DNA of 42,035 nucleotides from assembly GCF_022669155.1 (NCBI RefSeq), contig NZ_JALBVB010000059.1, forward strand, positions 14,449 through 56,483, in the 5' to 3' direction. A model generated the notes under the pieces. That model was not told the DNA's origin. It saw only the letters and a program-made list of their open reading frames with translations, and did no database searches. Position 1 is the stretch's first letter. Each line of letters opens with the position of its first letter. This DNA comes from Kineococcus sp. TRM81007. GTDB taxonomy: Bacteria; Actinomycetota; Actinomycetes; Actinomycetales; Kineococcaceae. Below, piece by piece: positions 9,309 to 37,412 of the stretch. A program made the translations under genes and the position numbers.

Positions 9309-9439
9309 CCCGTCCGACTGCCGACGACCCCGCCCGTGCCGGCGCTGAGATGGGGTGCTTCGTCCTACCCGGCCGTCGTGCACAGTGTGTGGACGAAGGT
9401 GTGGACGAAGCCCGTCGAACCGACCGGGCACGACGGGAG

Positions 9440-11020: not shown

Positions 11021-11712
11021 CCCGTCGCACGGACGCCCCCGCGCGGGGCTGACCGGCCGCCGTCCCCAGTAAGGCCCGACTCGTCCACAGGTCGTCCCCA
11101 CCCTTGTGCACCCCCGTGGAGCCCCCGCACCGTCCGGTGCGGGGGCTCTCTGCGTCCGGAGTCGTGCAGAACGTCCGGAAATCGGTTTCTCCCCAGGCGC
11201 CTCCACACTCGCCCACCGGTGCGAGGTGGTTGTCCACCGCTGTCCACACGCTGGGGACATCCCTGTGGACAGCGATGTCCCCAGTCGTGGACAACCCGGT
11301 GGACAGCCCGTGGACGCCGCAGCGGAGGGCTGGGGACGCCTGGGGACGCCGCCCCGGCCGTCCACCGCCCTGTGGATGACCGAGGCCCGTCGTCCGCAGG
11401 TGCTCCACACGCCTGGAAGGGGTGTGGAAGCCCGCTGACCTGCGCAGACGTCTCGTCGTCCACAGCCTGCACAAGGGCGACGACTACGGCGGATCCCTCT
11501 CCAGATGGATCCGTCAACCCACGAGAGGTGTGGACACGGGCTGGGGACGGTCTCCTCCGGAGGACCTGGAGGAGACCGGGAAGACCTGTGGGTGGCGGTG
11601 GACGGGCGGTGGACACCGCCTGCACCGGCTCCGGGCGTCTCCACTACTGTCGGGAACCGCCCGCGGTGCGGGCTGGTTCGGACGAGGTGGACTCGGCGGG
11701 AGGCGGTGCCTG
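11021..11712. other. oriC: Replication origin oriC, DnaA-box cluster
   Basis: The 692-base dnaA-dnaN gap. Compared with TTGTCCACA, single-mismatch boxes lie at 11081-11089, 11230-11238, 11240-11248 and 11456-11464 (plus) and 11264-11272, 11286-11294 and 11529-11537 (minus). 11371-11379 is one mismatch from the TTATCCACA form. Weaker copies lie at 11298, 11401 and 11608. Box density and position between dnaA and dnaN mark the origin. No perfect box and no clear AT-rich unwinding element is visible by eye; unwinding may start at a modestly AT-richer stretch near 11160-11190. The first 130 bases hold the dnaA terminator. Confidence 0.9.
11119..11148 (+). terminator. dnaA terminator hairpin
   Basis: A perfect 13-bp stem (11119-11131 with 11136-11148) closes a 4-base GTCC loop and lies 98 bases after the dnaA stop, at the left border of the DnaA-box cluster. 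It would keep dnaA transcription out of oriC. Confidence 0.7.
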
Positions 11713-35922: not shown

Positions 35923-36777
35923 GTGAGCGACGCCGCGAACGAGACCTCCACCGGGCAGCCCGTCTGCCCCCGGCACCCCGACCGCGAGTCGTGGGTGCGC
36001 TGCCAGCGCTGCGAGCGGCCCGCGTGCCCCCAGTGCCAGCGCCCCGCCGCGGTCGGGGTGCAGTGCGTGGACTGCGTCGCCGAGGGCAACCGCGGCGTGC
36101 GGCAGGGCCGCACCGCGCTCGGCGGCTCGGTGCGGGTGCGCGACAGCCTGGTGACGAAGGTCGTCGTCGTCGTGTGCGTGGCGATGTTCGCCGCGCGCTA
36201 CGTGCTGCCGGCGGACCTCTACTACTACCTGCCGCTCGTCAACGAGATCGGCTACGCGAACAGCTTCGACGCGGACACGTGGTGGCAGCCGCTGACGTCG
36301 GCGTTCCTGCACGCCTCGCTGCTGCACCTGCTGTTCAACACGTACGCGCTGTGGCTGACGGGGCACTACCTGGAGCCCCTGCTGGGGCGGGCGCGCTTCG
36401 CGGCCCTCTACCTGCTCTCCGCCCTGGGCGGGGCGGTGGGTGCGCTGCTGCTGCCGCTGACGGCCCACACGAGCCTGGTGGGCGCCTCGGGCGCCGTCTT
36501 CGGCCTGTTCGGGGCCCTGGTGGTCGTCAACCGGGACCTGGGCCGGCAGACCGGTCAGGTCGTGGCGCTGGTGGCGATCAACTTCGCGCTGGGGTTGTTC
36601 ATCAGCGGCGTCTCGTGGCAGGCGCACCTGGGCGGCCTGGTGACGGGCCTGGTGGTGGCCACCCTGCTGGTGCGGTTGCGGCGGCGGGCGCGGGCCGTGC
36701 AGTGGGCGGCGGTGGCCGCGGTGGCGATCGCGGTGCTGGCCCTGCTGGTGCACGCGGGCAGCCGCTCCGTCCTCTGA
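35923..36777 (+). CDS. Rhomboid-family intramembrane serine protease
   Basis: A 284-aa integral membrane protease. The catalytic pair is S189 in GASGAVFG and H235 in AHLGG; the conserved HLLFN (N139) supports the oxyanion site. Six or seven membrane segments span about 75-265. The first 60 residues form a cysteine-rich head (Cys 15, 27, 30, 35, 38, 48, 51 with His18) that looks like a zinc-ribbon or B-box-like knuckle, seen in many actinobacterial rhomboids. The GTG at 35923 starts the only reading that includes the head. Substrates are unknown. Confidence 0.92.
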   Translation: MSDAANETSTGQPVCPRHPDRESWVRCQRCERPACPQCQRPAAVGVQCVDCVAEGNRGVRQGRTALGGSVRVRDSLVTKVVVVVCVAMFAARYVLPADLYYYLPLVNEIGYANSFDADTWWQPLTSAFLHASLLHLLFNTYALWLTGHYLEPLLGRARFAALYLLSALGGAVGALLLPLTAHTSLVGASGAVFGLFGALVVVNRDLGRQTGQVVALVAINFALGLFISGVSWQAHLGGLVTGLVVATLLVRLRRRARAVQWAAVAAVAIAVLALLVHAGSRSVL

Positions 36778-37082
36778 GGAGTTGTCCACAGGGCGTCCGC
36801 ACAGGTGTGCGAACAGGCGGTGATTGTCCACGCGCTGTGGGTGGGGGTGTGGACAGTCGTCCGCCCCCACCCACAGTCGTCCACAGCCTGTGGATGGAAC
36901 GGTGGACAGGAACTGTGGACAGGAAGGGGCTCGTCCCCCGGCGATCCACAGCTCGTCCCCAGGTGGGTCGGGGATGAACGGTCCGCCAGCCGCACGGAGT
37001 GTTCACGACAGCACGGAGCGTCGATGCAGCGAGGACCCCGGAGTGCCGATCAGCGCTCCGGGGCCCTCGCGGTGAACGGCGG
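36778..37082. other. Second DnaA-box cluster, rhomboid-crgA gap
   Basis: 305 bases without a gene. Within 36782-36950 are a perfect TTGTCCACA (36782-36790) and single-mismatch boxes at 36824-36832 and 36877-36885 (plus) and 36848-36856 and 36914-36922 (minus). Two-mismatch copies lie at 36889-36897, 36901-36909 and 36942-36950. A 13-bp perfect hairpin (36835-36847 with 36864-36876, 16-base loop) carries one box in its loop. Both orientations occur. The rest holds the crgA terminator. Possible roles are DnaA titration, replication timing control or DnaA regulation of a neighbour. Confidence 0.85.
37030..37069 (-). terminator. crgA terminator
   Basis: A 14-pair stem with one A-C mismatch (37030-37043 with 37056-37069) and a 12-base loop lies 13 bases after the crgA stop. 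Confidence 0.6.
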
Positions 37083-37412
37083 TCAGCGCCAGCGCGTCGT
37101 CATGGCGAAGCCCACGAGGACGAGCCCGAAGCCGGCCACCAGGTTCCAGTTGTCCCAGCCGGGCACCGGGTACTGCGCGCTCGAGAGGTAGAAGACGACG
37201 ATCCACAGCAGCCCCAGGACCATGAGGGCGACCATGAGGAAGATCCACCAGCGCGGGGTGAGCCGGTTGCGGGCCTTGATCGCGCGGTCCGTGTCGTCGG
37301 CGGTGCTCCCACCGCGCCGGCGGCGGCGCCGGCCCGGTTCCGCCGCGCCCTCCGCGCCGGTGCCCTCCGCGGTCTCCTCGTCGCGCTTCCGCTCGTCGCG
37401 GGGCTCGGGCAC
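37083..37412 (-). CDS. crgA: Cell division protein CrgA
   Basis: A 109-aa actinobacterial divisome protein that interacts with FtsZ and with peptidoglycan synthases at the septum. A charged, Arg/Glu-rich cytoplasmic head (1-45) precedes two membrane helices: the first in RWWIFLMVALMVLGLLWIVV, the second in LVAGFGLVLVGFAM, joined by YLSSAQYPVPGWDNWN. These are the conserved CrgA features. The GTG at 37412 has GGAGGT 5 bases upstream. It is divergent from the DUF881 gene, with 127 bases between. Confidence 0.93.
   Translation of the reverse strand: MPEPRDERKRDEETAEGTGAEGAAEPGRRRRRRGGSTADDTDRAIKARNRLTPRWWIFLMVALMVLGLLWIVVFYLSSAQYPVPGWDNWNLVAGFGLVLVGFAMTTRWR

What the first reader, a model, noticed from the sequence alone, without database searches (positions are those of the whole stretch)
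36782..36950. A second DnaA-box cluster, denser than oriC, 25 kb away in the rhomboid-crgA gap
Eight DnaA-box-like 9-mers fall within 170 bases, in both orientations, including one perfect TTGTCCACA. The dnaA-dnaN origin has about eight one-mismatch boxes over some 460 bases and no perfect one. Clusters outside oriC titrate or reset DnaA in other bacteria (datA and DARS in E. coli, DnaA-box clusters in Bacillus). The site sits directly beside crgA, a division gene, which could link initiation to septation. The titration role is an inference.
Basis: partly seen in the sequence, partly recalled or inferred. Interest (0 to 1): 0.7.

Follow-up and report, generated by a model that had tools for sequence, protein, structure and literature searches.

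The report
DnaA control site beside crgA
The gap between a rhomboid gene and crgA holds a cluster of binding sites for the replication starter DnaA that many actinobacterial families keep at the same place, often fused to the binding motif of a cell-division regulator, so it is probably a shared switch that ties DNA replication to cell division.

Summary
The cluster is real. It has five DnaA boxes within one mismatch of TTGTCCACA, one perfect, in 141 bp. It is the densest cluster outside oriC and about as dense as oriC, depending on the measure. The gap is convergent (3' ends of rhomboid and crgA), so it is not the crgA promoter.

The site is conserved. All 12 family genomes and 81 of 98 chosen class genomes have boxes there, at 38 times the density of the surroundings. 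72 of 98 hold a rigid triad, one box facing two tandem boxes; shuffles give none. E. coli DARS cores have that topology with a wider inner spacing. In 55 of 98 a 20-bp palindrome stands there, often overlapping a box; it equals the published operator of McdR/ResR (PMC9040748). The mycobacterial counterpart, Rv0010c-Rv0011c (crgA), is bound by DnaA in vitro and in vivo (PMC7738170).

It is therefore most likely a widely conserved DnaA-control element. Sink or DARS-like reactivation remains open. The window's copy keeps the boxes but lacks a recognisable McdR operator. Regulation of crgA in cis is not supported.

The parts
35923..36777 (+). rhomboid-family gene, 3' end towards the cluster
   Evidence: PF01694 hit; coordinates
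36778..37082 (.). convergent rhomboid-crgA gap that holds the element
36782..36790 (+). DnaA box, perfect TTGTCCACA
36796..36813 (.). genus-level palindrome TCCGCACAGGTGTGCGAA, binder unknown
36824..36832 (+). DnaA box TTGTCCACG
36848..36856 (-). DnaA box CTGTCCACA
36877..36885 (+). DnaA box TCGTCCACA, opposed member of the triad
36889..36897 (-). weak DnaA box CCATCCACA, triad member
   Evidence: sequence
36901..36909 (-). DnaA box CTGTCCACC (2 mismatches), triad member
36914..36922 (-). DnaA box CTGTCCACA, extra tandem member
36953..36961 (+). weak DnaA box TCGTCCCCA (2 mismatches)
37083..37412 (-). crgA, 3' end towards the cluster (start codon chosen by me)
   Evidence: PF06781 hit
11021..11421 (.). 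dnaA-dnaN gap (oriC) used for comparison

Best explanation
The gap holds a dedicated, non-promoter DnaA-binding control element, the positional counterpart of the DnaA site mapped next to Rv0011c (crgA) in mycobacteria and found at the same place in most sampled families of the class. DnaA is taken to assemble on a rigid triad (one box facing two tandem boxes) plus extra boxes and so to change how much active DnaA reaches oriC. The site lies 26 kb from dnaA and doubles early after initiation; the likeliest single mechanism is a DnaA buffer (sink) that damps re-initiation. In many families the regulator McdR would bind the operator that overlaps one box, set DnaA occupancy and so couple initiation to the division programme; in this window's species no such operator is recognisable and the boxes act alone. 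Shown here: boxes, conservation, geometry, operator match, convergent context. Shown by others in mycobacteria: DnaA binding at the counterpart, and McdR binding to its motif at other promoters. Inferred: DnaA binding in this species, the effect on DnaA, McdR binding at this site, any McdR-DnaA interplay. My split: a DnaA-control element of some kind 0.85; as a sink about 0.45; DARS-like reactivation about 0.25; another DnaA role about 0.15.
For: Boxes beyond chance. 226 boxes in 45.5 kb of gap against 139 in 1071.6 kb outside, in 98 loci. Triad in 72 of 98 gaps and 36 of 42 families, mean 0.0 in shuffles, 5 outside. Box columns hold 32 of 42 invariant columns in an alignment of 11 of 12 family genomes. 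Convergent context. crgA within 60 kb of dnaA in 36 of 43 genomes, median 23 kb. DnaA binds the mycobacterial counterpart in vitro and in M. smegmatis in vivo (PMC7738170, passages; Rv0011c = crgA, PMC3989709, passage). DnaA-box clusters near oriC repress untimely initiation in B. subtilis and S. coelicolor, as cited in PMC4585315 and PMC5742627 (passages).
Against: No DnaA binding was measured in this species. In PMC7738170 site mutants resemble low-activity dnaA mutants, with initiation rate reported as unchanged; loss of a sink should instead raise initiation. Two genomes with crgA 168 and 177 kb from dnaA keep two boxes each, so closeness to oriC is not needed for keeping it. 17 of 98 loci have no one-mismatch box in the preset target, two of them (G026, G029) because the site has moved with rhomboid. 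The window's own triad is weak (5 mismatches, over my cut of 4), and triads also occur in 8 of 20 dnaA-dnaN regions and twice in the window's oriC. The operator is missing in f32, f34 and 9 of 12 f1 loci at 18 bits.
Confidence: 0.5

Rival explanations
1. A DARS-like reactivation site: the triad holds ADP-DnaA so that ADP is released and ATP-DnaA regenerated, with McdR in place of IHF/Fis as the timing factor in many families.
For: Triad topology equals that of E. coli DARS cores: one such triad in each of the two E. coli loci examined, and the review's description of box I opposite to boxes II and III (PMC5742627, passage). Mycobacterial site mutants resemble low-activity dnaA. McdR overproduction raised ori-proximal copy number in M. 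smegmatis (PMC9040748, passages).
Against: Inner spacing is 10-12 bp here against 14 in DARS. The site is usually near oriC. Initiation rate was unchanged in the mycobacterial mutants. Triads occur in some oriC regions too.
Confidence: 0.25
2. DnaA acts there on transcription: it regulates or insulates the converging rhomboid and crgA transcripts (or Rv0010c in mycobacteria).
For: In mycobacteria the site lies upstream of Rv0010c (PMC7738170, passage). The single-strand fold of the region is strong (not compared with shuffles).
Against: Here both genes end in the gap, so no promoter of either lies in it. Neither Rv0010c nor Rv0011c expression changed in dnaA mutants (PMC7738170). In G029 the boxes lie away from crgA.
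Confidence: 0.12
3. A second or auxiliary replication origin.
For: Box density similar to oriC. The gap is less GC-rich than the dnaA-dnaN gap (0.685 against 0.728). The same triad geometry occurs in the window's oriC.
Against: The gap is not among the ten most AT-rich stretches of the window at 50, 100 or 200 bp, although oriC is not clearly either. oriC is usually flanked by dnaA and often dnaN (PMC4285127, passage), and the dnaA-dnaN box array is present here. GC skew is too noisy to tell.
Confidence: 0.03
4. Chance or base composition of intergenic DNA.
For: Gaps are less GC-rich, and the reversed motif is also commoner in them (35 hits, 0.77 per kb, against 0.083 outside).
Against: 226 true against 35 reversed hits; 0 of 2000 shuffles reach the window's count; triad in 72 of 98 against 0.0 in shuffles.
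Confidence: 0.01

Closest known systems
Rv0010c-Rv0011c DnaA-binding site of mycobacteria (PMC7738170: abstract, passages, one results section, discussion)
   Same: Same place next to crgA, DnaA boxes in the same triad topology, near oriC; 78 of 79 mycobacterial loci examined have the triad and 77 a one-mismatch box.
   Different: In mycobacteria Rv0010c lies beyond the site, so it is not purely convergent; the McdR operator is intact there (78 of 79) and not recognisable in this window.
DARS1/DARS2 of E. coli (PMC5742627, passages)
   Same: Core of three boxes, one opposed to two tandem ones, tandem spacing 12 bp; a regulator site beside the core (IHF/Fis there, McdR motif here in many families).
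   Different: Inner spacing 14 bp in DARS, 10-12 bp here; oriC-proximal here; no biochemical test.
datA of E. coli (PMC5742627, passages)
   Same: Box cluster near oriC that is copied early.
   Different: Essential datA boxes all point one way and an IHF site is needed; here the core has an opposed box.
DnaA-box clusters of S. coelicolor (D78, H69, H24; names recalled) and B. subtilis
   Same: Clusters outside but near oriC, reported to repress untimely initiation (cited in PMC4585315 and PMC5742627).
   Different: The 2006 Streptomyces paper is not held, so I could not check whether its H69 cluster is this very gap; I suspect so from recall.
McdR/ResR (Rv1830) operator (PMC9040748, abstract and passages)
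   Same: The motif found here without prior knowledge, AATNACANNNNTGTNATT, is the published one letter for letter.
   Different: Published targets are promoters; here it sits in a crgA 3' gap, overlapping a DnaA box. McdR binding at this site is not shown.

Membership tests
DnaA-box cluster outside oriC | more boxes than chance, outside the dnaA-dnaN gap | tested here: met
DnaA-box cluster outside oriC | bound by DnaA in the cell | not testable with these tools
   shown by others only for the mycobacterial counterpart (PMC7738170)
DnaA-box cluster outside oriC | its loss changes initiation | not testable with these tools
   none here; mycobacterial site mutants: longer cells, initiation rate unchanged
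counterpart of the mycobacterial Rv0010c-Rv0011c site | DnaA boxes next to the crgA 3' end | tested here: met
   window; 77 of 79 mycobacterial loci; 81 of 98 class loci
counterpart of the mycobacterial Rv0010c-Rv0011c site | same triad topology | tested here: inconclusive
   window triad has the geometry but 5 mismatches (cut 4); 11 of 11 other family genomes pass
DARS | three boxes, one opposed to two tandem ones | tested here: inconclusive
   72 of 98 loci pass, the window's own copy does not pass the cut
DARS | the box spacing shared by DARS1 and DARS2 (14 and 12 bp) | tested here: not met
   12 and 12 in the window, inner spacing 10-12 elsewhere
DARS | promotes ADP release from DnaA | not testable with these tools
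   needs biochemistry
datA | essential boxes all in one direction | tested here: not met
   both orientations in the cluster
datA | IHF site between the boxes | not tested
   no motif for an actinobacterial IHF was searched
McdR/ResR operator site | AATNACANNNNTGTNATT in the gap | tested here: not met
   window best score -9.9 bits; met in G010, G002, G007 of the family and 55 of 98 loci
Replication origin | AT-rich unwinding element beside the boxes | tested here: inconclusive
   gap not among the most AT-rich stretches, yet less GC-rich than the dnaA-dnaN gap

The most novel reading that the evidence does not exclude
Much of the class Actinomycetes carries one ancestral, mostly oriC-proximal DnaA-McdR composite: a DARS-like DnaA triad whose end box overlaps the operator of the division repressor McdR. 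McdR binding would switch the DnaA state at this locus (reactivation, or release from a sink), so one protein represses division through whiB2 and permits initiation at the same time. This would explain why McdR overproduction gives filaments with raised ori copy number, and what the cryptic mycobacterial DnaA site is for. Some lineages (this window, f34, f32) lost the operator and run the DnaA part alone.
Probability: 0.3. Interest if true: 0.9.

Novelty: new variant of a known kind. Interest (0 to 1): 0.74.

Why it matters
The authors who mapped the mycobacterial DnaA site left its role open and saw no counterpart in other species. Here it proves to be an element of fixed geometry found in most sampled families of the class, often fused to the operator of a known division regulator. 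That gives a concrete, testable link between replication initiation and division, and it can be studied in harmless actinobacteria.

Tried and rejected
Genome-wide positions: one search listed only the first 100 of 205 one-mismatch sites and only the first 100 pairs; I replaced them by three narrower searches, which leave out some one-mismatch classes (for example TTGTCCTCA, TTGACCACA). The gapped pattern hits coding repeats too often to be useful.

One search used a wrong reading frame for crgA; corrected. misread the orientation of genome-search loci (they are not turned); superseded.

MtrA was considered as binder of the palindrome and rejected: its published motif is a direct repeat (PMC6265350, passages). 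BldD was considered from recall only. The genus palindrome TTCGCACANNTGTGCGAA was not identified.

GC skew across the window is too noisy to place an origin. The fold of the gap was not compared with shuffles.

Motif control: the same iterative procedure on five other segment sets started from 5, 1, 1, 0 and 3 seed sites (54 in the true gaps) but still converged on weak motifs of 12-13 bits in 35-68 segments in four of the five sets. So the 8-bit cut (60 loci, 36 families) is not strict; I use 18 bits (55 loci, 33 of 42 families). The column values sum to about 21 bits for the true motif.

Naming McdR: I took the MerR-type gene next to the BFN gene as McdR from gene order, which I recall; searches confirm a MerR domain only, and no model names McdR.

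In my notes 2 and 4 I wrote that G260's crgA is 403 kb from dnaA; the two lie on different contigs, so that distance is unknown and is not used. Whether this gap is the Streptomyces H69 cluster could not be checked: the paper is not held, and searches did not show its coordinates.

Full report
What was checked. The finding names eight DnaA-box-like 9-mers in 36782-36950. Within 1 mismatch of TTGTCCACA there are five, one perfect; two more have 2 mismatches, and a weaker box at 36889 is read from the sequence. Shuffles of the gap never reached five (0 of 2000). Of 155 genome-wide sites in three strong box classes, this is the densest cluster outside oriC; a cluster of three at C28:66554-66632 follows. 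Against oriC the result depends on the measure: equal in 100 and 300 bp, ahead in 170 bp, behind in 460 bp, and behind when two-mismatch boxes count.

Setting. The gap 36778-37082 lies between the 3' ends of rhomboid (PF01694) and crgA (PF06781). It holds no start of either gene; crgA's own promoter should lie beyond its start, near 37412 (inference). dnaA lies 26 kb away.

Conservation. CrgA was found in 38 of 39 relatives and 245 of 246 class genomes. I took 98 loci: the 38 relatives with a match, and 60 more from the class list. They were picked by hand from the listed coordinates (the list stops at the better CrgA scores) to spread over families; this is not a random sample, and 9 of the 51 families seen (one without a CrgA match) are not in it. 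The target was the convergent gap, or 400 bp below crgA where rhomboid was not within 2.5 kb. 81 of 98 have at least one box, 56 at least two, 36 at least three; 226 boxes in 45.5 kb (4.97 per kb) against 139 in 1071.6 kb outside (0.13 per kb). The reversed motif gave 35 inside and 89 outside. All 12 family genomes have 3-7 boxes. In an alignment of 11 of these 12 (G005 left out), 32 of the 42 invariant columns of 36782-36922 fall in box columns, which are 63 of 141; 2 of 141 circular shifts of the box mask, the true one included, do as well. In G026 and G029, where genes are rearranged, boxes stand at the rhomboid 3' end; both count as misses in the 81 of 98.

Geometry. Pairs of boxes cluster at 12-13 bp in tandem and at 10-12 and 22-24 bp facing each other. 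Together they make a triad: one box opposed to two tandem boxes. With boxes of up to 2 mismatches from TTRTCCMCA and a total of at most 4, the triad is in 72 of 98 gaps and 36 of 42 families, on average in 0.0 loci after shuffling (20 shuffles per gap), and 5 times outside. The window's own triad (36877, 36889, 36901; spacings 12 and 12) has total 5 and fails this cut; the 11 other family genomes pass with the same spacings. The same script found one triad, with spacings 14 and 12, in each of the two E. coli loci fetched as DARS1 and DARS2; their positions are recalled, not checked. In the 1.1 kb below dnaA the triad is in 8 of 20 genomes, and the window's oriC has two. So the geometry is frequent at this site but not unique to it.

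A second element. Reading one gap per family showed a palindrome next to the boxes. An iterative motif search gave GAATNACANNNNTGTNATTC (limits of its control are told under tried and rejected). At 18 bits or more it is in 55 of 98 loci, 33 of 42 families, with 7 hits outside the preset region. The coordinates place all seven at this same site: G013 (two), G016 and G030 inside long gaps, G081 just beyond the assigned rhomboid end, G026 and G029 at the rearranged sites. Of 54 loci listed, 44 have a box just to the left; in 37 of these the box starts 6-8 bases before the palindrome, an overlap of 1-3 bases. Whole-genome searches in 36 genomes found 0-13 copies at up to 2 mismatches, against 0-3 for the reversed control. 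Of 20 stretches fetched around copies elsewhere I scanned 20 chosen open frames from 16: two gave whiB, four DUF3263, two LytR_C beside DUF3263, one dnaB; the rest gave CofD, cell-wall or sugar enzymes, an AMP-binding fragment, or no family. The motif is letter for letter the published operator of McdR/ResR, a MerR-family regulator that represses whiB2 and whose overproduction causes filaments and raised ori-proximal copy number in M. smegmatis (PMC9040748: abstract and passages; PMC10336103: passages). In the main texts, PMC9040748 holds none of Rv0010c, Rv0011c, crgA or dnaA, PMC10336103 none of Rv0011c, crgA or dnaA (Rv0010c also 0 in the listing), and PMC7738170 none of Rv1830, McdR, ResR or whiB2. 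Supplementary tables were not searched and may hold the site.

Mycobacteria. DnaA binding was mapped with M. tuberculosis DNA in vitro and in M. smegmatis in vivo; one of five sites is Rv0010c-Rv0011c (PMC7738170: abstract, passages, one results section, discussion). Rv0011c is crgA (PMC3989709, passage). The paper says the site has no obvious counterpart in other species; site mutants had longer cells like dnaA mutants, with initiation rate given as unchanged. Of 80 named loci fetched with a mycobacterial CrgA, one was too short; of 79, 77 have a one-mismatch box, 78 the operator, 76 both, 78 the triad, and in 77 the operator stands at one fixed distance from it. M. tuberculosis and M. smegmatis are not among the 80.

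The window's own lineage. The McdR operator passes 18 bits in G010, G002 and G007 of the 12 family loci; the window's best score is -9.9. A MerR-type gene beside the BFN gene, which I take as McdR from recalled gene order, is found in 21 of 24 stretches, the query's own included, and in the window's genome at 63% identity over 181 residues. Another palindrome, TTCGCACANNTGTGCGAA, stands in 9 of 12 family gaps. So the window shows the DnaA half of the element without a recognisable McdR half.

Position. crgA and dnaA coordinates on one contig were at hand for 43 of the 46 genomes; 36 lie within 60 kb, median 23 kb. Two genomes with crgA 168 and 177 kb away keep two boxes each; the farthest, G022 at 569 kb, has none in the target.

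Mechanism. The element is not a promoter of its neighbours here, and an origin is unlikely but not excluded (the gap is less GC-rich than the dnaA-dnaN gap). The main choice is between a sink and a reactivation site. For a sink: closeness to oriC, many boxes, and the reported repression of initiation by clusters in B. subtilis and S. coelicolor (cited in PMC4585315 and PMC5742627, passages). For reactivation: the DARS-like triad, and mutants that resemble low-activity dnaA. Both predict that McdR could raise initiation, by displacing DnaA from the sink or by activating the site; removal of the element tells them apart. I rate sink 0.45 and reactivation 0.25.

Novelty. DnaA-box clusters near oriC are known, and the mycobacterial site is known. 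I found no paper that joins them, or reports the conservation over the class, the triad, or the McdR operator at this site; the searches were made, in open-licence papers only, mostly seen as listings. The 2006 Streptomyces paper was not available and may already describe the Streptomyces copy.

Noticed in passing
L072 2928-2980 (G000:C13:81927-81979): Three DnaA boxes of at most one mismatch upstream of a dnaB gene that carries an intein; DnaA is reported to bind upstream of dnaB in mycobacteria (PMC7738170).
   Followed up: partly
L071 2535-2633 (G000:C28:66534-66632): The second-densest box cluster outside oriC, between ABC-transporter and CbiQ-like frames; role unknown.
   Followed up: partly
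window 36796-36813: Palindrome TTCGCACANNTGTGCGAA, kept in 9 of 12 family gaps; in the 8 family genomes among the 11 searched, exact copies of its 16-base core occur only at this site (5 genomes). Binder unknown.
   Followed up: partly
L175 3033-3052; L159 2980-2999; L163 3026-3045; L165, L170, L172, L174: McdR-type operators upstream of or near dnaB, whiB and DUF3263 genes outside mycobacteria: the McdR regulon seems widely shared.
   Followed up: partly
dnaA-dnaN regions of G115 (L285), G151 (L293), G106 (L288): Operator-like palindromes of 18.7-19.2 bits near oriC in 3 of 20 genomes; McdR might act at oriC in some lineages.
   Followed up: no
window 9376-9408: Two TCGTCCACA boxes 12 bp apart, and a triad, inside the long frame listed for dnaA.
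   Followed up: no
L238: A record titled Acidobacteria carries a crgA 82% identical to a mycobacterial one, probably a misbinned contig.
   Followed up: no
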